Below are positions 15,201 through 24,239 of a DNA stretch of 64,000 bases, one piece after another. Under the pieces are notes generated by a model. The model was not told the DNA's origin. It saw only the letters and a list, made by a program, of their open reading frames with translations, and did not search any database. Each line of letters begins with the position of its first letter. Positions within the stretch are counted from its first letter, which is position 1. The DNA is from Falsochrobactrum tianjinense (GTDB lineage Bacteria > Pseudomonadota > Alphaproteobacteria > Rhizobiales > Rhizobiaceae), in the NCBI RefSeq assembly GCF_019100495.1, contig NZ_JAHRVA010000002.1:243834-307833 (forward strand), read 5' to 3'. Position numbers and translations under genes: made by a program.

Positions 15201-15959
15201 TCATAAATAATAGACGCCAATGCGTTTGCCGCCGATCATCTCGACAGCAATTTCCATGTGGTAGATATCCTGCAAGATTTCCGGGCGAATGAGTTCGTCC
15301 GGAGTACCCTGATGCACGACCTTGCCGTGACGCATCGCGACGATATGGTCGGAATAGCAGGATGCAAAATTGATGTCATGCAGCACCAGCACAACCGTCT
15401 TGCCCAGTTCGTCGGCAGCGCGCCGCAACAGCTTCATCATCGTTGCCGAATGTTTCATGTCGAGATTGTTGAGCGGCTCGTCCAGCAGCACATAATCGGT
15501 GTTCTGGCATAAAACCATGGCCACGAATGCCCGTTGGCGCTGTCCCCCAGAAAGCTCGTCCAGAAAGCGATCTTCCAGATCTTCAAGCTCCAGATAGCCT
15601 ATGGCCTGCTCGACATGCTTGCGGTCTTCGCTGTTGGGGCGCCCTTTGGAATAGGGATAACGGCCAAAGGCGATCAGGTCGCGTACGGTCAGGCGCGAAT
15701 TGATAGCATTTTCCTGCCGCAGGATGGAAAGGCGCTTCGCCAGCACATCGCCAGACGTCTTGGTGATATCGAGCCCATCCACGGTGACGCGACCCTTATC
15801 CATCGGCAAAAGCCTGCTGATCATGGAAAGAAGCGTGGATTTTCCCGCGCCGTTCGGCCCGATGATCGAGGTAATGCCGCATGCAGGCAATTTGAGCGAT
15901 ACATCATCGACGACAAGATTGGCACTGTAGGACTTGCTGACTTGGCTGATTTCGATCAA
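15201..15959 (-). CDS. Siderophore ABC transporter ATP-binding protein
   Basis: Cytoplasmic ATPase of 252 residues in the FecE/FepC family. Walker A is GPNGAGKST, the signature [15 protein letters not shown], Walker B YVLLDEPLNNLD. The start is taken as TTG at 15959 with GGGGA eight bases upstream; the TTG overlaps the permease stop as TTGA. A longer reading upstream lacks family similarity. It is the last gene of the siderophore operon. Its stop codon abuts the stop codon of the convergent peptidase gene with no spacer. Confidence 0.92.
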   Translation of the reverse strand: MIEISQVSKSYSANLVVDDVSLKLPACGITSIIGPNGAGKSTLLSMISRLLPMDKGRVTVDGLDITKTSGDVLAKRLSILRQENAINSRLTVRDLIAFGRYPYSKGRPNSEDRKHVEQAIGYLELEDLEDRFLDELSGGQRQRAFVAMVLCQNTDYVLLDEPLNNLDMKHSATMMKLLRRAADELGKTVVLVLHDINFASCYSDHIVAMRHGKVVHQGTPDELIRPEILQDIYHMEIAVEMIGGKRIGVYYL

Positions 15960-16909
15960 CGTGCATTTCCCCTGACGAGAAGAATGATAAAGACAAGCCC
16001 GCCCAGGAACTCGATGATGACGCTGAGTGCCGTGTTGAAGGCAAACACCCGTTCCAGAACGGTCTGTCCCCCGACGATGCACAGGATCGCCAGAAGCACG
16101 GCCACCGGCAATACGACACGATGTTTCCCAGAGCCTGCGATCATATAGGCGAGATTGGCAACAAGGAGGCCAAAAAAAGTGATCGGGCCGACAAGGGCCG
16201 TGGATACGGAAACGAGTATCGTCACCATAAGCAGAATTTTATGGACCACCCGGCGATGCTCGACGCCAAGATTGATTGCCGGATCACGGCCAAGCGCGAG
16301 CACATCGAATACATGCATGAAGCGCAGGCCATACAGCGTGACAACTGCCACGATGATGGCCGCAAGCAGAAGAATATCGGCATTGACGCTATTGAAGCTC
16401 GCGAAGAACCTGTCTTGCAGGACCGCAAAAAGATTGGGGTCGAGCATACGCTGCATGAGATTCGAGAAACTGCGAAAGAAAACACCAAATACGATGCCTA
16501 CAAGCATGACAAGATGGAGACTTCGGGCGGGACCTGAAAAGAGCCATGCATAAAGAAAACCAGCGAAAACCGTCATGATGGCCGCTTCAGCAAGAAAACG
16601 ACTGTTGGGTCCGATGCCCTCGATATGAACCGCGCCGAAAACGAAGACTGCGAGTGTCTGAATGAGGATGTAAAGTGAATCGAAGCCCATGATCGAGGGT
16701 GTGAGAATACGATTATTGGTGATGGTCTGAAACAGCACTGTTGAAACGGCGATCGAATAGGCGACAAGCACCATTGCCGCGAGCTTCGTGCCGCGGAACG
16801 AGAGGATGAAAAACCAGTCCCCTTTCGCACCAATCGTCATGAACGCGGCACACGAAAGTGTGACAAGGGCTGAGAGAAAAATGACGATGGCCACCGGACG
16901 TTTAAGCAA
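15956..16909 (-). CDS. Iron-siderophore ABC transporter permease 2 (FecCD family)
   Basis: Inner-membrane permease of 317 residues, almost entirely hydrophobic with about nine membrane segments. Recognisable family stretches are ALGRDPAINLGVEHRRVVHKILL and LVGPITFFGLLVANLAYMIAGSGKHR, the FecCD segment that contacts the ATPase. It starts at TTG 16909 inside the end of the first permease gene (8-base overlap), so the two are coupled. Order and sequence resemble the CeuC/FatC permeases for catecholate siderophores. Confidence 0.9.
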   Translation of the reverse strand: MLKRPVAIVIFLSALVTLSCAAFMTIGAKGDWFFILSFRGTKLAAMVLVAYSIAVSTVLFQTITNNRILTPSIMGFDSLYILIQTLAVFVFGAVHIEGIGPNSRFLAEAAIMTVFAGFLYAWLFSGPARSLHLVMLVGIVFGVFFRSFSNLMQRMLDPNLFAVLQDRFFASFNSVNADILLLAAIIVAVVTLYGLRFMHVFDVLALGRDPAINLGVEHRRVVHKILLMVTILVSVSTALVGPITFFGLLVANLAYMIAGSGKHRVVLPVAVLLAILCIVGGQTVLERVFAFNTALSVIIEFLGGLVFIILLVRGNAR

Positions 16910-17864
16910 GGTGCGAACCCCGCCGCAAGAGCAGATAAAGGAAGATCACGCTGCCCACGACACCCATCATTGTGCCGATAGGTATCTCGTAAGGAAAGCG
17001 GATCAACCGCCCGGCAATGTCGCAGGCGAGGACCAGCCCAGCGCCCAAAACCGCGACCCATGGCACGGCGCGGCGCATATTATCGCCGATGAACATGCTC
17101 ACCACATTGGGTACGATGAGACCAAGAAAAGGAATCATGCCGACCGTCACCACGACCGACGCGCTCACCATTGAAACGATGACGAGGCCGAGGGTGACGA
17201 CGCGGCGATAATTGAGACCGAGATTGGTGGTAAAATCCTCGCCAAGCCCTGCAACCGTGAAGCGGTCGGCGGCGATATAGGCAATCACTGTAAGAAAGAA
17301 GGAAAGCCATAAAAGCTCGTAACGCCCGCGCAATACGCCGGAAAAATCGCCCGTCGTCCAGGAATTGAGCGATTGCAGCAGATCAAAACGATAGGCGATA
17401 AAAGTCGTCACCGCACTGATGACCCCGCCAAGCATGATGCCGACGAGCGGGACCACCAGAATGGAGCGTAACGGAATGGCGCGCAGGATACGCAGGAAGA
17501 GTGCTGTGCCTGCAAGCGCGGTGAGGGACGCCACCAGCATCTTGCCGAAGACAGAAGTTTCGGGCGCGAGCAGGATCACGAAAAGGATGCCGAGGCTAGC
17601 CGATTCCACCGTCCCGGCAGTGGAAGGTTCAACGAAGCGGTTGCGGGTGAGCATCTGCATGATCATGCCTGCCACTGCCATCGACATTCCAGCAAGAATG
17701 ATGGCCAACGTGCGCGGTATGCGGCTTATTAGCAGCACTTGTGTTGCGCGATCGGTGCTGCCTGCTCTGAAAAGCGTATCCAGCGACACATTGCTGACGC
17801 CGATAAACAGGCTGATGACAGCCAGCACGGCGACAACGAATGTGGCTGCTGCAAGTCCCTTCAC
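16902..17864 (-). CDS. Iron-siderophore ABC transporter permease 1 (FecCD family)
   Basis: First inner-membrane permease, 320 residues from a GTG start. Family segments are STAGTVESASLGILFVILL, WTTGDFSGVLRGRYELLW, GLGEDFTTNLGLNYRRVVTLGL and GMIPFLGLIVPNVVSMFIGDN. It resembles CeuB/FatD of catecholate-type importers and should form the channel with the second permease. It lies 83 bases after the binding-protein stop, and that gap carries an 8-bp inverted repeat. Confidence 0.9.
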   Translation of the reverse strand: MKGLAAATFVVAVLAVISLFIGVSNVSLDTLFRAGSTDRATQVLLISRIPRTLAIILAGMSMAVAGMIMQMLTRNRFVEPSTAGTVESASLGILFVILLAPETSVFGKMLVASLTALAGTALFLRILRAIPLRSILVVPLVGIMLGGVISAVTTFIAYRFDLLQSLNSWTTGDFSGVLRGRYELLWLSFFLTVIAYIAADRFTVAGLGEDFTTNLGLNYRRVVTLGLVIVSMVSASVVVTVGMIPFLGLIVPNVVSMFIGDNMRRAVPWVAVLGAGLVLACDIAGRLIRFPYEIPIGTMMGVVGSVIFLYLLLRRGSHLA

Positions 17865-17947: not shown

Positions 17948-18877
17948 TTATTCTGCCTTCTCGAACGCCTGTGAAAGCTGCTCGATGGTGCCATGCAACG
18001 CGCCCAGGCCTCCGCCAACGAGATACCAGTTCTGCGAGTTCAGATAAACGATCTGATCTTTCTTCCAGGCATTGGTCTGGCGGACGAGATCATTGTCGAG
18101 AACCTGCTTGGCCGAATTGCCTTCACGGCCGATTGCTGCGTCACGATCAATCACGAACAGCCAATCGGGATTGGTTTCGAGAATGAATTCCGAGCTGATC
18201 GGCTGGCCATGACTGCCGATGGCAAGGTCAGGCGCTGCCGGTTCTACACCAAAGCTGTCATGAATGACGCCAAAACGGGAACCAGGACCATAGGCGCTCA
18301 TCTTGCCGCCAGAAGTCAGTATCATCAGACCCTTGCCCTTGCCGACAGCCTTTTCCTTAAGCGCCGCAAGTGCCGCATCAAGCTTTTCGATTTCCGCCTT
18401 GGCTTCCGTTTCCTTGCCGAAAATCTGGCCGAGTTTTTCGACATTGGCTTCAGTGTCGGCGATGAAATTCTTTGCCGCAACAGTTACGTCGATGGTCGGT
18501 GCAATTTTTGCCAGTTCGCCATATTTCGCTGCCGAACGGCCGCCAACGATAATCAGTTCGGGTTCTACGGCATTCACTGCTTCATAATCAGGCTCAAAGA
18601 GCGTGCCAACCTTGGTGTAATCATCGCCCTCATACTTTTTCAGATAGTCCGGAAAAGGGATGTTGCCCGGAATGCCGATAATCTTGACGCCGAGACGGTT
18701 GAGATTGTCGAGGGTAGCAAAATCAAACACCACGATCTTTTCAGGATTGGCGGTGACGACCGTTTCACCCTGTGCATGCTTGACGGTGATGTCAGCCGCG
18801 CTGGTGGTCGAGGTGAGGGCGGCTGCAACAAGTGCCGCACCGCAAAGACGGACGAAATTCCGGCTGAGGTTCAACAT
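17948..18877 (-). CDS. Siderophore ABC transporter substrate-binding protein (CeuE/FatB-like)
   Basis: Periplasmic binding protein of 309 residues, PF01497 type (class III). Start at 18877 is chosen for the AGGA eight bases upstream and a clean signal peptide ending TSTTSAADI. Motifs: PEKIVVFDFATLDNLNRLGV, EPDYEAVNAVEPELIIVGGRSA, GVIHDSFGVEPA and NSQNWYLVGGGLGALHGTIEQL. The last is the segment that carries the iron-contacting Tyr in CeuE and YclQ. Catecholate siderophores are the likely ligands. No lipobox is present, as expected for a soluble Gram-negative protein. Confidence 0.91.
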   Translation of the reverse strand: MLNLSRNFVRLCGAALVAAALTSTTSAADITVKHAQGETVVTANPEKIVVFDFATLDNLNRLGVKIIGIPGNIPFPDYLKKYEGDDYTKVGTLFEPDYEAVNAVEPELIIVGGRSAAKYGELAKIAPTIDVTVAAKNFIADTEANVEKLGQIFGKETEAKAEIEKLDAALAALKEKAVGKGKGLMILTSGGKMSAYGPGSRFGVIHDSFGVEPAAPDLAIGSHGQPISSEFILETNPDWLFVIDRDAAIGREGNSAKQVLDNDLVRQTNAWKKDQIVYLNSQNWYLVGGGLGALHGTIEQLSQAFEKAE

Positions 18878-19017
18878 GGCGTTCGATCCTTTCATCAATC
18901 CTGTGCTTTATAGTCTGGTTTTCTTCCAGTCAAAGCAGGAAGTTAAAAATTAATAGTTTTTTGGCCTGAATGGAGTGCCCGACAGTGAGAACATTTAATG
19001 AACCACGCCGTAAACAA

Positions 19018-19065: not shown

Positions 19066-21201
19066 TCAAAACTTGGATGTGAGGGAGATAAAGTAGCTTC
19101 TGCCGTTCTCCACGTAATTGGATTCTGTTTTTGGCTGCTTATCGAAAATATTGTTCACACCGAGGCGGAGGGTTACATATTCTGAAGGGTCATATTTGAA
19201 GGAAACATTGGCAACCGCGTAAGGTGATACATTCTGGGCGACAAGAGTTTCTGGCGACAGAACGTAATCAACCTGCTTGCCGTAATAATCGACCGATCCG
19301 GTAACACTGAAGTCTTCGCGCGCCTGCCATGTGACTTCCGAATGGACGGAGTACTCCGGGTCTGCGGAGAGTGGCAGTCCTGTTTCAAGGTTTTTGGATT
19401 CAAACAGGTATGTGAATGAGTTCGTCCAAGTCCAGTCTTGATGAGGATAGACCGTCAATCCACCTTCCAGCCCTTGTGTGCGAGCGCGATCGATGTTGAC
19501 CTGCTGCACATATTTGGTACCCTCGCCAGTGATAAGCGACGCTTGGCGGGCCGAGGTGATCTTGTCGTCAATCTCATTATAGAAATAGGTCAGGTTGGCT
19601 TCCCATATGCCATTCTGGTAAACGCCGCCAAGCTCGAAGCTGTTGCTCGTTTCCGGCTTCAGGTCCGGATTGCCCACCATTTCGCAAGGGCCACCAACAG
19701 CACCGCAACCGCGGCCACGAGAAGTCTGCACCCAGTTCGGGTTTAGCTGGCGCATGTTTGGTGCCTTGAATGCCTGCGCCCACCCGGCTTTGAAAGTCAG
19801 ATTGTCGCTGAAGTCATAATTGAGATAGACGCGAGGGCTTGCGTGGGTACCGAATTTCTCGTGCTGATCGATGCGAAGACCGGCAGTCAGCTTCAAATCT
19901 TCCCGAAGTCTGATCTGGTCCTCGACAAATACCGCCCCGGTCCACATACTCGTTTCAGTGGAGCCGGAAGTGCCAGTTACGGAATTTGCCTTGCCAAGAT
20001 TTTCCGGGTCGCTCATTTCTTCGTAACGAAGCTCGCCGCCAATCGTCAAATCCTGTTCAAACCAGAAGTCCAAAGGCATGGAAAGTTTGCCATCGAGCGT
20101 ATAGCTACGCACATTGATAGTGGTGTCGCCGGTTACAATGCCGCTGCGGTCAAGAGTATTATGATGGTTGTCGGCATTTTCGATAAATGCTGTGATTGTT
20201 GATGTGCCGAAGTCCCACTCGCCGACATGCCGGAGAGAACCAGTGGTGCGGCGGATGGATGTTTTACTCGTGTCAATCTCGCCATCGGCCAGATAAGGAC
20301 GGTATTTCTCCTGCCCTGTGCTTCCTTCAATTTCAAACAACTGGTTGGAGGTAGGCGTCCAGGAGAATTTTGCAGTAATATCATAATCATCGACGCCGCG
20401 CGGCGTCTGGATGTCATCATGTTCTGTTGGATTAGAGGGTTTTTGTTTGCCAATGCTACCGTAAGCGGTGAAAGTCAATTCATCAGGTACAATAGGCCCG
20501 CTTACATATGCGCTTACTTTTTTGGTAGCACCCGTAGCCTTGCTTTCGGGCTGAATCCATTCAGTGGTAAGCGATCCAGTCCAGCTATCCCTGGATTTCT
20601 TGGTGATAATATTTACCACGCCGCCCAGCGCATCTGAACCATATAACGTGGACATTGGGCCGCGGACAATTTCAATGCGCTCGATCGCGTCCAAAGGAAC
20701 CCAGTCAAGATCGCCATTATAATGGCGCAAGGTGGTAAGGCCAGCATTTACGCGCTTTCCATCAATAAGAATAAGCGTGTATCCGCTGCCCATGCCGCGC
20801 ATACTAATACCACGCGTCCCATCGCTGCCAAAACCTACATTGACGCCCGGTACGGTTCGCAATGCTTCCGTTATATCGGGTGCTGCCCGTTGCTGAAGTT
20901 TTTCCTGGCTCAAAACAGAGATGCTTGCTGGCGCATCCTTCGCGGTCGTTGCGATTGAAGAGGCAGTAACAACAATCTGATCAAGTACGATCCCGCCGCC
21001 ATTCTCGGTTGCCTGCGCAACTTCGTTACTCGTTTCGCCGGAACCTGGTGCGCTTTGTGCAAGAGCCATTGCGCTACCAAGAATGAGCGTCGTCGAAAGA
21101 CATGTGCCCGCGAGGATCGCTTTTACGAAAAGCGACTTGCTGGCTAATTGCCTGCTCTGTGTGCTATTCGTCGCCCACAATCCCCGAAACAAGCTGGTCA
21201 T
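19066..21201 (-). CDS. TonB-dependent outer-membrane siderophore receptor
   Basis: Outer-membrane receptor of ~711 residues in the FepA/CirA/IrgA class. A long N-terminal leader ends near SAMALAQSAPG. A TonB-box-like DQIVVTAS follows, then the plug (APASISVLSQEKLQQR, RTVPGVNV, ISMRGMGSGYTLILIDGKRVN, ERIEIVRGPMSTLYGSDALGGVVNIITKK) and the beta-barrel ending in SLTSKF with terminal Phe. A Cys pair in RGCGAVGGPCEMVG probably forms an extracellular-loop disulfide, as in FepA. The start at 21201 has GGTGA upstream; an in-frame ATG at 21270 is possible. The adjacent CeuE-like ABC genes point to catecholate-iron uptake. Confidence 0.93.
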   Translation of the reverse strand: MTSLFRGLWATNSTQSRQLASKSLFVKAILAGTCLSTTLILGSAMALAQSAPGSGETSNEVAQATENGGGIVLDQIVVTASSIATTAKDAPASISVLSQEKLQQRAAPDITEALRTVPGVNVGFGSDGTRGISMRGMGSGYTLILIDGKRVNAGLTTLRHYNGDLDWVPLDAIERIEIVRGPMSTLYGSDALGGVVNIITKKSRDSWTGSLTTEWIQPESKATGATKKVSAYVSGPIVPDELTFTAYGSIGKQKPSNPTEHDDIQTPRGVDDYDITAKFSWTPTSNQLFEIEGSTGQEKYRPYLADGEIDTSKTSIRRTTGSLRHVGEWDFGTSTITAFIENADNHHNTLDRSGIVTGDTTINVRSYTLDGKLSMPLDFWFEQDLTIGGELRYEEMSDPENLGKANSVTGTSGSTETSMWTGAVFVEDQIRLREDLKLTAGLRIDQHEKFGTHASPRVYLNYDFSDNLTFKAGWAQAFKAPNMRQLNPNWVQTSRGRGCGAVGGPCEMVGNPDLKPETSNSFELGGVYQNGIWEANLTYFYNEIDDKITSARQASLITGEGTKYVQQVNIDRARTQGLEGGLTVYPHQDWTWTNSFTYLFESKNLETGLPLSADPEYSVHSEVTWQAREDFSVTGSVDYYGKQVDYVLSPETLVAQNVSPYAVANVSFKYDPSEYVTLRLGVNNIFDKQPKTESNYVENGRSYFISLTSKF

Positions 21202-21317
21202 TTTTGTCACCGTTAAAGTTGAGTTTCTTGCTCCTCTTAAGTATGGCAAGATGGTGACGTCAATCTTCATGTTTTATAAACGTTCCAAGTTGCAGAAAAT
21301 GCAATTGAGTGGGTGCT

Positions 21318-22799
21318 ATGGCGATGATGAGCAAACATAGAAAAACACAGGCAGATGCAGAGAATGCGAATGGTGAGACGTCACGCCTAGGTCAATTACG
21401 CCTGTTGATTGCACTTGATGCTCTTCTTGTGGAAGGAAGTGTTGGTGGAGCCGCAAAGCAGATGGGACTGAGCACGGCCGCCATGAGCCGCCTGCTTGGG
21501 CAGATTCGTGAAAAATTTGATGATCCCATTCTGGTGCGCTCTGGGCGCAGCATGGTTGCCACACCTAAAGCCGAGGCTTTGCGAGGCCGCCTTCGCCGCC
21601 TTGCCAACGAAGCCGAAGCTTTGATGAAACTCGATAACGGAGAGATCGCTGCTCCATCCGGCAAGGGGCACCAGAGTTGGAGATATACCAGTGCCATCAC
21701 CATTCCGCCCCCGCTCAGCATCCGCAAGGTTCCAGAACTGGAAAATCACCCGACGCCAGAGCAGGTCGCAGCGCAGTTCGCCAATATTCAAAGCGAGAAT
21801 GATCCTGTCCGGCGATTAGCGAAATATATTGCCATAACGGGCCGTAAGATCGGTCATGCGCGCCCGCTTGAAATCCATGAAGCGGAAGATGCATTCGCCA
21901 CAATCCTTGCTGGTGAGGCTGACCCGATGCAGATCAGCGCCTTGCTACGTCTCATTCATTATCGAGGGGAAACCGCACCGGAACTTGCTGGCATGGCGCT
22001 CGCCGCTCACAAATATTGTTCCACAGCCACCGCTTTTCCAGCACCTGCCCTGGACTGGCCTGCGCATCTGTCGCCCAATTCCCAGCAATCGCCGTGGTTC
22101 ATGCAGGCCGCATTACTGGTCGCGCGCGCGGGTTATCCAGTCGTACTGCATGGAAATTGCGGCACGGGCGAGTTTGCGGGTAAGCTGGAACTGGCAGCAG
22201 AAGCGGTCAACATACCTATTGCGACATCGCTGGCGCAGGCGAAAAGCTCAATTGCCGCCCATCATATCTGCTTTATGCCGCTGGCCGGATTTGCGCCGCA
22301 GATTCACGCACTGCTTGCGCTTTATCCGCTTTTTGAATCGCGCTCCCCAATCAACAGCTTGGTTCATCTTCTCAATCCCATGCAAATGCCTGCATCATTT
22401 CTCGGTGTTACACAGCCCGCCTATCGGGAGTTGCATCGCGATGCCGCAGGATTGCTGGGCTGGCATTCAGTCTCGGTCGTTTCGACTAGCCGCGATGTGG
22501 CGGAGCTCGTCCCGCATCGCCCGCACACCATCCATCGTCTGGTTGACGGCCAGAAGACCAATCTGATGTTGCCATCATTGTCGAAAGCCGTGTCAGACAA
22601 ACACGCAAGCCTTAGCGCTTTTGAGTATTGGCATGCGATCTGGTCGGGGACGGCCGCCGACAAGCGGGCCACACACACGATCATCGCGACAGCCGCCATG
22701 GCTTTGATGACAGTGCTGGGAGCAGACGATGAGAGCTACGGACAATTCTACGCCAGGGCCGAGGAGTTGTGGTGCAGGCGCCATCAGCGCGCTGCTTGA
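21318..22799 (+). CDS. LysR-type HTH fused to a TrpD2/YbiB-like (glycosyltransferase family 3) domain
   Basis: About 493 residues with two parts. Residues ~24-90 are a LysR-type helix-turn-helix (LLIALDALLVEGSVGGAAKQMGLSTAAMSRLLGQIREKF, then DDPILVRSGRSMVATPKAEAL). The usual LysR effector domain is absent. From ~130 to the end there is an anthranilate-phosphoribosyltransferase fold: EDAFATILAGEADPMQISALLRLIHYRGET, VVLHGNCGTGEF, HHICFMPLAGFAPQIHALL, RSPINSLVHLLNP. The GTGGD PRPP loop of true TrpD is missing, as in the nucleic-acid-binding TrpD2/YbiB proteins. Divergent from the siderophore receptor, so it may control it. ATGs at 21318, 21324 and 21327 are all possible. Confidence 0.82.
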   Translation: MAMMSKHRKTQADAENANGETSRLGQLRLLIALDALLVEGSVGGAAKQMGLSTAAMSRLLGQIREKFDDPILVRSGRSMVATPKAEALRGRLRRLANEAEALMKLDNGEIAAPSGKGHQSWRYTSAITIPPPLSIRKVPELENHPTPEQVAAQFANIQSENDPVRRLAKYIAITGRKIGHARPLEIHEAEDAFATILAGEADPMQISALLRLIHYRGETAPELAGMALAAHKYCSTATAFPAPALDWPAHLSPNSQQSPWFMQAALLVARAGYPVVLHGNCGTGEFAGKLELAAEAVNIPIATSLAQAKSSIAAHHICFMPLAGFAPQIHALLALYPLFESRSPINSLVHLLNPMQMPASFLGVTQPAYRELHRDAAGLLGWHSVSVVSTSRDVAELVPHRPHTIHRLVDGQKTNLMLPSLSKAVSDKHASLSAFEYWHAIWSGTAADKRATHTIIATAAMALMTVLGADDESYGQFYARAEELWCRRHQRAA

Positions 22800-23002: not shown

Positions 23003-23407
23003 CTATTCGTTATCGTAGGCTTCGGTATCGATACCGAGTGCGGCTAGCCCTTCCTCTATATAGTCGCCCAGAAGCGGCGTTCCGAGGAGGTATTTTGCCT
23101 CGCGCCCATTATGACGCTCACTCGCGGTATTCAATGCGTCTTGCCACTCATCGGCGCTGAAATCGCCGCGCCCGACCCACATCAATGCCAGAAGTTCGAT
23201 TCTTTCGTCTTCATTGAGCGAACGGATCGCGGCAACCAGTTCCTTGCGGGTTGGATTGTCGGGTGAAGCGTCGAGAATGTCGACATCGCCGTCATCGGTT
23301 GAATTGGAGCCGGAGTTTTCGTCGACGGTCGGCACCTGCACATCATATTCCCGTGCCTTGGAGATGATATATTCGAGGTTTTCGATATTATTTGCCAACT
23401 CGACCAT
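23003..23407 (-). CDS. DUF3775 domain protein
   Basis: Small acidic protein of 134 residues, probably cytoplasmic. The start at 23407 is set by GGAGG six bases upstream; the frame is open a further 27 codons without support. The conserved pattern of DUF3775 is visible: LEYIISKAREYDVQVP, an acidic Asp/Ser-rich linker, then NEDERIELLALMWVGRGDF and DEWQDALNTA. Function of the family is unknown to me. It follows the TSUP exporter gene by ~73 bases on the same strand and may be co-transcribed with it. Confidence 0.8.
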   Translation of the reverse strand: MVELANNIENLEYIISKAREYDVQVPTVDENSGSNSTDDGDVDILDASPDNPTRKELVAAIRSLNEDERIELLALMWVGRGDFSADEWQDALNTASERHNGREAKYLLGTPLLGDYIEEGLAALGIDTEAYDNE

Positions 23408-23480
23408 AATGCGCCTCCGTTGCTCCCCGCGCACAAAGTATGGTGACGGAGGCGGACAAGCTTGGCAAGCGGGAAATGAT

Positions 23481-24239
23481 TTATCCAAGAAAAGGCAGAA
23501 CCCAGTCGGCGATCAGCTTTATGGACAGGCCGAAAAGAGTGAGCTGAACCAGCAGGAAGAACGGGCCGGGCGGCATGATGCGGGTAAGCTTAGCGCCGAC
23601 CAAAGTGCCGATGACCGCAGCGGGGATCAACCAGTAGCCCAGCGACCAGTCCAGATGCGAGAACTGCTGCAATTCCCAATAAGGCACAAGTTTGACCGCA
23701 TTGACGACGGCGAAAAGTATGGTCGAAGTTCCGGCAAAAACCAGCTTTTCGAGATGCTGCGGGAGCACATACATCTGAAAAGGCGGCGCGCCGGAATGGG
23801 ATACAAAGCTGGTCAGCCCCGTCAATATGCCCCAAAAAACTCCGCCGGGAATATCAGCCTTGCGCGCCTGCCTGCGATAGCGGGCGCCGATCCATGCATT
23901 GACGCAGAAGAAAATGCCGACCAGTCCGACCAGCATTCCGATGAATGTGCTCGAAAGATGCGAACTGAACATCCAGCCTACGCCAACACCAACTGTCGCC
24001 GCCGGTATGAGGATCGCAAGGTTTCGCGCGGAAAAATGGTGGCGATAGAGATAAAGGCCGAACATGTCGCTGATGACATAGATGGGCAGCAGAAGGGCTG
24101 CGGCCGTCACTGGCGATATGACCAGCGCCATCAGCGGCACAGCGAGGGTGCCAACAGAAGGAAGACCGCCTTTTGACAACCCTACCAGAAATGCCGCGCC
24201 GATCGCGATAGACAGAAAAAGAGGTGTATGCTCAAGCAT
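23481..24239 (-). CDS. TSUP family membrane transporter (TauE/SafE-like)
   Basis: Inner-membrane protein of 252 residues with about seven or eight membrane segments. The family start AAFLVGLSKGGLPSVGTLAVPLMAL and the second-half repeat FWGILTGLTSFVSHSGAPPFQMYVLPQHL are characteristic of TSUP proteins. These export sulfite or sulfoacetate, or move other small organic anions. No sulfur-metabolism gene is adjacent, so the substrate is open. It precedes the DUF3775 gene on the same strand. Confidence 0.88.
   Translation of the reverse strand: MLEHTPLFLSIAIGAAFLVGLSKGGLPSVGTLAVPLMALVISPVTAAALLLPIYVISDMFGLYLYRHHFSARNLAILIPAATVGVGVGWMFSSHLSSTFIGMLVGLVGIFFCVNAWIGARYRRQARKADIPGGVFWGILTGLTSFVSHSGAPPFQMYVLPQHLEKLVFAGTSTILFAVVNAVKLVPYWELQQFSHLDWSLGYWLIPAAVIGTLVGAKLTRIMPPGPFFLLVQLTLFGLSIKLIADWVLPFLG

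What the first reader, a model, noticed from the sequence alone, without database searches (positions are those of the whole stretch)
21318..22799. Fusion of a LysR-type HTH with a TrpD2/YbiB-like domain next to a siderophore receptor
The usual LysR sensor domain is replaced by a phosphoribosyltransferase-like fold lacking the PRPP loop. TrpD2/YbiB proteins bind nucleic acids without sequence preference. The gene is divergent from a TonB receptor, a classical place for a regulator. This could be a new regulator type in which the TrpD2 domain binds DNA, RNA or a nucleotide ligand.
Basis: partly seen in the sequence, partly recalled or inferred. Interest (0 to 1): 0.7.

Follow-up and report, generated by a model that had tools for sequence, protein, structure and literature searches.

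The report
Fused switch for siderophore iron uptake
A gene beside an iron-scavenging receptor joins a DNA-gripping switch part to a dead enzyme fold, and its relatives in many soil bacteria sit in the same place beside a shared DNA signal, so it is probably a so far undescribed type of iron-uptake regulator.

Summary
ORF 21309/21318-22799(+) is one frame with a LysR-type HTH_1 and a TrpD-like half. That half is the PRK09071 family (415 bits, cut-off 257), not YbiB itself (74.6, cut-off 185). The model (mean pLDDT 83.5) matches YbiB and anthranilate phosphoribosyltransferases. Fusions form one clade. Siderophore importer and/or TonB receptor genes lie beside 87 of 90 fusion loci and 0 of 37 stand-alone PRK09071 genes. 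A composite DNA element (Irr-box-like half plus T-N11-A, TTCYAARTT-N9-GCAA) lies upstream: at least 12/13 positions in 37 of 49 non-redundant fusions, at least 11/13 in 5 of 6 loci not used to derive it, and upstream of the receptor in 12 of 13 loci where that gene lies elsewhere. Best reading: a dedicated LysR-type regulator whose repurposed TrpD pocket senses a ligand, perhaps a catechol. Binding, ligand and regulation are inferred, not shown.

The parts
21318..22799 (+). LysR-HTH/TrpD2 (PRK09071) fusion gene, ATG start; longest frame begins at GTG 21309
21396..21575 (+). HTH_1 domain (winged helix-turn-helix, LysR type); model helices within 15-67 and linker helix 83-103 of the 493-aa protein
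21627..21755 (+). low-confidence linker, residues about 104-146
21756..22775 (+). TrpD2-fold domain, residues about 147-486
22062..22085 (+). former PRPP loop (residues 249-256): GTGGD replaced; S252 49 of 49 and P253 46 of 49 in fusions, A 36 of 37 and G 33 of 37 in stand-alones
22323..22325 (+). Tyr336, in the column of the anthranilate-binding Arg (Arg193 of M. tuberculosis AnPRT): Tyr 40, His 9 of 49 fusions; Arg 31, Lys 5, His 1 of 37 stand-alones
22491..22496 (+). Arg392-Asp393 next to the former Mg loop: R 49 of 49 and D 48 of 49 in fusions; Gly 30 of 37 and 37 of 37 in stand-alones
21273..21304 (+). composite element: Irr-box-like TTTATAA-ACG-TTCCAAG (21273-21289) overlapping T-N11-A element TTCCAAGTTGCAGAAAATGCAA (21283-21304); dyad AGTTGC-N7-GCAATT 21288-21306
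21255..21269 (+). IRO-box-like site TGACGTCAATCTTCA (RirA consensus TGA-N9-TCA)
19066..21270 (-). TonB-dependent siderophore receptor, FepA/CirA-like by best NCBIfam hits (below their cut-offs); conserved start at 21201
17948..18898 (-). periplasmic siderophore-binding protein (Peripla_BP_2; best NCBIfam hit SstD, catechol, below cut-off)
16902..17864 (-). FecCD-type permease 1
15956..16909 (-). FecCD-type permease 2, by match to annotated relatives; not itself scanned
15201..16082 (-). siderophore ABC transporter ATPase, by match to annotated relatives; not itself scanned

Best explanation
A dedicated local transcription regulator. The LysR-type winged HTH binds, as a dimer or tetramer, the T-N11-A part of the composite element at 21283-21304 and switches the divergent TonB receptor gene, and probably the ABC importer genes and itself, on under low iron together with Irr and RirA, whose likely boxes lie in or next to the same element. 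The C-terminal TrpD2-fold half replaces the usual LysR effector domain: a former phosphoribosyltransferase pocket, stripped of its PRPP loop, that senses a small ligand. The most likely ligand is a catechol: the imported siderophore or a breakdown product such as 2,3-dihydroxybenzoate, which resembles anthranilate. Shown: domains, predicted fold, single clade, linked genes, the conserved element and its presence at the receptor gene where that lies elsewhere, loss of the PRPP loop and of most YbiB-type DNA-binding arginines. Inferred: binding to the element, activation, oligomer, ligand.
For: Domains and fold. Linkage: siderophore importer and/or TonB genes in 87 of 90 fusion loci (60 receptor directly divergent, 13 receptor 3' and convergent), 0 of 37 stand-alone PRK09071 loci; in the 49 non-redundant loci receptor 44, importer 37, divergent 36. 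Element: at least 12 of 13 positions in 37 of 49, shuffles of two-base blocks mean 0.05; 0 of 37 stand-alone upstreams reach 11; random 500-base windows from the same loci reach 12 in 16 of 960. Perfect copy only once in the own 3.5-Mb genome. In 18 of 21 genomes of the genus (own included) a perfect copy lies just upstream of the fusion; 4 other perfect sites occur in those 21, 6 with the pattern read backwards. Loci not used to derive it: at least 11 of 13 in 5 of 6, 36-134 bases upstream of the match. Where the receptor gene lies 3' of the fusion, the element is upstream of the receptor in 12 of 13 loci (four at 13, four at 12, four at 11 of 13). Pocket: 4 of 11 fusion-only fixed positions (S252, P253, R392, D393), and the Tyr/His at 336, fall at the loops that hold PRPP, anthranilate and Mg in AnPRT. 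Single clade: 29 fusion rows one side of a branch, SH-aLRT 100. Catechol link: the window's receptor scores best with FepA and CirA models; of 5 receptors scanned beside other fusions 4 score best with PRK13483 and 1 with Fiu, none over those cut-offs; an esterase-like gene lies in 13 of 49 loci (PF00756 checked in 3), not in the window.
Against: No binding, expression or ligand data. The left half of the element fits the Irr box (consensus recalled), so Irr may explain half of its conservation. The pattern was drawn from the same 49 loci; 6 of 49 score under 11: three at 10 (L064, L068, L069) and three at 8 (L100, L101, L107, Azospirillum and Roseomonas), and held-out L276 has none. With one mismatch allowed the own genome has 10 sites against 9 for the backward pattern, so only near-perfect sites mean anything. 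An IRO box is kept in 12 of 13 of the window's group but in 5 of the other 36 against 2.5 by shuffling. 7 of the 11 fusion-only fixed positions lie outside the old active-site loops, and the Mg-binding Glu column is still E 32 or Q 17 of 49. The anthranilate-binding Arg is gone, so a carboxylate would need other contacts; the catechol ligand rests on gene context.
Confidence: 0.65

Rival explanations
1. The TrpD2 half binds DNA or RNA without sequence preference, as YbiB does, and adds affinity or RNA-level control to the HTH.
For: Foldseek's best match is YbiB. Basic residues lie within two columns of Arg123 in 14 of 17 fusions tested (27 of 37 stand-alones) and of Arg92 in 10 of 17 (36 of 37 stand-alones).
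Against: Arg at the Arg92 and Arg123 columns themselves in only 2 of 49 and 3 of 49 fusions, much commoner in stand-alones; scores far below the YbiB model cut-off.
Confidence: 0.12
2. It is a regulator, but the pocket senses another molecule than a catechol, e.g. a tetrapyrrole, an iron-linked metabolite or a nucleotide.
For: Stand-alone PRK09071 genes lie within 5 kb of families represented by siroheme synthase (17 of 37 loci), nitrate reductase (13 of 37), NirB (13 of 37) and TusD (6 of 37), each named from one representative; the Cereibacter fusion lies near a heme oxygenase gene. The anthranilate Arg is replaced by Tyr or His.
Against: None of the 37 stand-alone loci has siderophore genes, so the fusion has changed its pathway; receptors and the binding protein beside fusions score best with catecholate models, below cut-offs.
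Confidence: 0.2
3. The element is an Irr (and RirA) site only, and the fusion protein acts elsewhere or on the membrane or transport machinery, not at this promoter.
For: The TTTAGAA-N3-TTCTAAA half matches the recalled Irr box; of 7 loci with similar sites whose neighbours I scanned, 3 lie by ferritin, a rubrerythrin-VIT1 protein or imelysin.
Against: The 8 Irr-box-like sites of the own genome lack TT-N9-GCAA (8 sites is no excess, the backward pattern gave 13). The GCAA block is as fixed as the Irr half and is found at the receptor gene where that lies elsewhere. In 397 order genomes the full composite with one mismatch allowed occurs 13 times (backward pattern 0): 3 at fusion loci, and in 9 of the other 10 the mismatch falls in the TT or GCAA part, as if these were plain Irr boxes.
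Confidence: 0.15
4. An enzyme (phosphoribosyltransferase) that is targeted to or regulated through DNA.
For: Homology to AnPRT.
Against: GTGGD lost in 49 of 49 (its first Gly and Asp columns hold A/C/V/S and P/A), anthranilate Arg lost; trpD model 74.4 bits against a cut-off of 199.05.
Confidence: 0.03

Closest known systems
PRK09071 / NF006564 'glycosyl transferase family protein' (stand-alone)
   Same: C-half scores 415 bits against a cut-off of 257; shared D246, W247, P259, W260, H278, G279, R342, P354, W485
   Different: 0 of 57 stand-alone matches L121-L177 has the HTH in its ORF; they keep a basic residue at the AnPRT Arg193 column (Arg or Lys 36 of 37) and lie by siroheme and nitrate assimilation genes
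YbiB, defining member of the TrpD2 family of nucleic-acid-binding proteins (E. coli)
   Same: fold, no PRPP motif (family description from passages of PMC10123104 and PMC9835598)
   Different: no HTH in YbiB; YbiB's Arg92 and Arg123 are mostly absent here; below the YbiB model cut-off
LysR-type transcriptional regulators, in particular the irgB-irgA arrangement of Vibrio cholerae
   Same: LysR-type HTH, regulator divergent from a siderophore receptor gene, T-N11-A element. IrgB as activator of the IrgA enterobactin receptor: passage of PMC7600106; that IrgB is LysR-type and divergent is recalled
   Different: the LysR effector domain is replaced by a TrpD2-fold domain
ModE (recalled, no call confirms it)
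   Same: a LysR-like HTH with a sensor domain other than the LysR effector domain
   Different: ModE carries molybdate-binding domains, not a TrpD fold

Membership tests
LysR-type transcriptional regulators | N-terminal HTH_1 winged helix-turn-helix with linker helix | tested here: met
   HTH_1 4.1e-11, 43.1 bits against 26.6; model helices within 15-67 and 83-103; its fold was not searched apart
LysR-type transcriptional regulators | C-terminal LysR effector (periplasmic-binding-protein-like) domain | tested here: not met
   no such family among Pfam hits to E 1; C-half is Glycos_trans_3N/Glycos_transf_3 and TrpD fold
LysR-type transcriptional regulators | T-N11-A operator near -60 of a target promoter | tested here: inconclusive
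   TTCYAARTT-N9-GCAA conserved; binding and transcription start not measured; typical T-n11-A and a -60 site described in passages of PMC12609908
TrpD2 (YbiB) family | TrpD fold without PRPP motif | tested here: met
TrpD2 (YbiB) family | YbiB equivalog model PRK08136 cut-off | tested here: not met
   74.6 bits, cut-off 185
TrpD2 (YbiB) family | conserved Arg92/Arg123 used for nucleic acid and ObgE | tested here: not met
   Arg in 2 of 49 and 3 of 49 fusions; window Ser and Ala
TrpD2 (YbiB) family | sequence-independent nucleic-acid binding | not testable with these tools
   needs a shift assay
PRK09071 (NF006564) | model cut-off over nearly the whole profile | tested here: met
   415.3 bits, positions 2-333 of 335, cut-off 257
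Anthranilate phosphoribosyltransferase (TrpD) | GTGGD PRPP motif and anthranilate Arg | tested here: not met
   trpD model 74.4 bits, cut-off 199.05

The most novel reading that the evidence does not exclude
A new class of siderophore-responsive regulator in alphaproteobacteria in which the anthranilate/PRPP pocket of a phosphoribosyltransferase fold has been turned into an intracellular catechol-siderophore sensor. It works through an operator that overlaps the Irr box, so one DNA element reads both iron status (Irr) and presence of the siderophore (fusion).
Probability: 0.3. Interest if true: 0.8.

Novelty: new variant of a known kind. Interest (0 to 1): 0.62.

Why it matters
If right, a family annotated 'glycosyl transferase family protein' or 'hypothetical protein' in most annotated records listed here is a regulator family of catecholate siderophore uptake. 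It would be a clear case of a dead enzyme fold becoming a sensor by one gene fusion, and would add a ligand-specific layer on top of Irr and RirA, which mediate iron-responsive regulation in rhizobia (passage of PMC6386902). It also gives a way to ask what the puzzling stand-alone PRK09071 and TrpD2 proteins bind.

Tried and rejected
Defence system: no PADLOC hit. Phosphoribosyltransferase activity: PRPP loop lost. First motif tries: dyad counts gave weak signals; AGTTGC-N7-GCAACT was partly right; TTCYAARTT-N10 had the gap one base too long; N9 is the pattern reported, so it was chosen after looking at these sites. The dyad CTTAT-N8-ATAAG common in the window's group is not kept in the window and was dropped. 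The element is not a plain promoter: no -10 at a fitting distance in the wider set (read by eye). Rows dropped before counts: L061, L062, L096, L111 (truncated, split, or frames with a doubtful start) from the 49-locus set, and near-copies at 88% identity or more; L096 (Arenibaculum) shows neither receptor nor importer and counts as a miss among the 90. Of 40 fetched 'stand-alone' places, L190 and L191 proved to be fusions and L214 gave no ORF match, leaving 37. The promoter alignment holds the window and 21 of 23 chosen loci (L047 and L082 gave no anchor). The alignment used 17 of 49 fusions; one search used all 49. The VIA-align list shows only AnPRT among its 50 rows; YbiB is not in it but is Foldseek's top hit. 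Papers: no description of such a fusion was seen in the listings of searches (open-licence PMC library only; listings capped; PRK09071 and one search gave 0 papers). The defining YbiB paper (PMC4528117) and the alphaproteobacterial regulon paper (PMC1698941) are not held. What I saw of papers: passages of PMC10123104, PMC7600106, PMC6386902, PMC3413700, PMC7762939, PMC12609908, PMC12815270, PMC5445326; passages and section 7 of PMC9835598; in PMC8822346 my terms gave no passage. Recalled, from no call: the Irr-box consensus, LysR class of IrgB, ModE, likeness of anthranilate and 2,3-dihydroxybenzoate.

Full report

2. Spread. 31 of 34 same-genus genomes carry a full-length fusion in one frame; G001 has it in two pieces, G013 a fragment, G026 none. 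The nearest named relative is Falsochrobactrum shanghaiense (77% identity). A scan of one genome per species kept the best 80 of 113 relatives, among them Brucellaceae, Rhizobiaceae, Phyllobacteriaceae, Microvirga, Azorhizobium and Azospirillum; plasmid records add Cereibacter, Shinella, Pannonibacter and, by match range, Sulfitobacter. In an even sample of the order 7 of 397 genomes (6 of 142 genera) match at E 1e-60 or better, so it is patchy. Annotated records in the listings call it 'glycosyl transferase family protein', 'hypothetical protein' or, in one listed row, LysR family regulator.

3. One clade. In a quick maximum-likelihood tree of 68 TrpD2 domains (29 fusions, 37 stand-alones, YbiB, own TrpD) all fusions are one side of a branch (SH-aLRT 100, no bootstrap), on a long stem (1.43), among alphaproteobacterial stand-alones. 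Of the 57 stand-alone matches L121-L177 none has the HTH in the same ORF.

4. Gene neighbourhood. With the window's receptor, binding protein, two permeases and ATPase as queries, 87 of 90 fusion loci have at least one of these within the fetched stretch (up to about 10 kb each side; some contigs end sooner); in 60 the receptor is directly divergent, in 13 it lies 3' and convergent. The three without are L061 (truncated), L096 and L098 (a 3.4-kb contig). None of 37 stand-alone PRK09071 loci has any; families recurring within 5 kb of these are, each named from one representative, siroheme synthase (17 of 37 loci), NirB (13), nitrate reductase (13) and TusD (6). The 90 are partly near-copies; in the 49 non-redundant loci the receptor is present in 44, the importer in 37 and neither in 1. 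The receptor type varies while the regulator stays: the window's receptor scores 899 bits or more against the receptors of 6 other loci (L033, L039, L040, L060, L094, L119) but about 250-385 against most others. The window's receptor scores best with FepA and CirA models; of 5 receptors scanned beside other fusions 4 score best with PRK13483 and 1 with Fiu, none over those cut-offs. An esterase-like gene lies in 13 of 49 loci (PF00756 checked in 3), not in the window.

5. DNA element. The divergent region is strongly conserved in the window's group (22 sequences). A pattern TTCYAARTT-N9-GCAA was found upstream of fusions: 13 of 13 positions in 28 of 49, at least 12 in 37 of 49, at least 11 in 43 of 49; shuffles of two-base blocks gave means of 0.05 (12 or more) and 0.89 (11 or more); of 37 stand-alone upstreams none reaches 11; random 500-base windows from the same loci reach 12 in 16 of 960. 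The pattern was chosen on these loci, so an outside test matters: of 6 fusion loci not used for it (L275-L280, two of them the L190 and L191 places), 5 have at least 11 of 13, 36-134 bases upstream of the match; L276 has none. In the window it is 21283-21304. It is the only perfect copy in the 3.5-Mb genome; with one mismatch there are 10 sites against 9 for the backward pattern, so weak sites mean nothing. In 18 of 21 same-genus genomes a perfect copy sits just upstream of the fusion, and 4 other perfect sites occur in those 21, against 6 for the backward pattern.

6. It follows the receptor. In 13 loci the receptor gene lies on the far side of the fusion. In 12 of these a copy (four at 13, four at 12, four at 11 of 13) lies 19-83 bases upstream of the receptor ORF, often in the fuller form ATGTTTTAGAA-N3-TTCYAARTT-N9-GCAA; L039 has none. 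Some of the 12 are close relatives. This links the element to control of the receptor.

7. What the element is. Its left part, TTTAGAA-N3-TTCYAA, fits the Irr box (consensus recalled). Of 7 loci with similar sites whose neighbours I scanned, 3 lie by iron genes: ferritin with a monooxygenase and a TonB receptor gene, a rubrerythrin-VIT1 protein, imelysin; the number of such sites in the own genome (8) is no excess over the backward pattern (13). Those 8 lack TT-N9-GCAA. In 397 order genomes the composite with one mismatch allowed occurs 13 times (backward 0): 3 at fusion loci with the mismatch in the left half, and in 9 of the other 10 the mismatch is in the TT or GCAA part. So the right part is special to this locus. 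Left and right together read T-N11-A, the usual LysR-type spacing (passages of PMC12609908). If the TTGACG at 21258-21263 (minus strand) is the receptor's -35 box, which is my reading, the element would centre about 65 bases upstream of the receptor's transcription start, near where such a site is expected. A RirA-type IRO box (TGA-N9-TCA, passage of PMC6386902) is at 21255-21269; it is kept in 12 of 13 of the window's group but in only 5 of the other 36, against 2.5 by shuffling.

8. The TrpD2 half. GTGGD is gone in all 49 fusions. The column of the AnPRT Arg that holds the anthranilate carboxylate (PMC9835598 section 7) is Tyr 40, His 9 in fusions and Arg 31, Lys 5, His 1 in 37 stand-alones. 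Of 11 positions fixed only in fusions, S252 and P253 lie in the former PRPP loop and R392 and D393 next to the former Mg loop; the other 7 lie elsewhere, and the Mg Glu column is still E 32 or Q 17. YbiB's Arg92 and Arg123, which bind nucleic acid and ObgE (passages of PMC10123104), are Arg in 2 of 49 and 3 of 49 fusions. Basic residues within two columns remain in 10 of 17 and 14 of 17 fusions, against 36 of 37 and 27 of 37 stand-alones. I read this as a pocket rebuilt for another ligand rather than a nucleic-acid groove.

9. Mechanism. Most likely a LysR-type regulator of catecholate siderophore uptake, its effector domain exchanged for a TrpD2 sensor, acting on an operator that overlaps an Irr box. 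Regulation, binding and ligand are inferred; the catechol ligand is the weakest step. The Azospirillum-type loci without the element are a warning that operators there differ or that the reading is incomplete.

10. Verdict. Not chance, not an artefact, not a lone curiosity: a conserved regulator-like family in one clade, without a description in the paper listings I saw. A new variant of a known kind (LysR-type regulation with an unusual sensor).

Noticed in passing
L037:8968-11055, L083:9992-12040, L085:9971-12025: In these Rhizobiaceae-type loci the fusion frame runs on for about 190 residues; in L037 this holds a hydrophobic stretch and an IalB domain (PF06776, 1.1e-15): a possible membrane-anchored form with an outside domain.
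   Followed up: partly
L178-L217 (stand-alone PRK09071 loci): Stand-alone PRK09071 genes cluster with siroheme synthase CysG, NirB, nitrate reductase and TusD families, which suggests a role in siroheme/nitrate assimilation.
   Followed up: partly
L062, L061, G001, G013: Copies of the fusion that are split, truncated or fragmentary (Brucella cytisi, Mesorhizobium sp. RMAD-H1, two unnamed same-genus genomes).
   Followed up: no
window 23003-23488 (-): DUF3775 protein of unknown function downstream of the fusion (PF12616, 2.7e-31).
   Followed up: no
G000:C16:190933-190975 (L253, L254): Two Irr-box-like palindromes 26 bases apart between a ferritin-like gene and an ABM monooxygenase plus TonB receptor gene.
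   Followed up: partly
window 19066-21270 against L041-L059: The receptor beside the same regulator is of a different type in the window and Falsochrobactrum than in most loci of the genus, an apparent receptor exchange.
   Followed up: no
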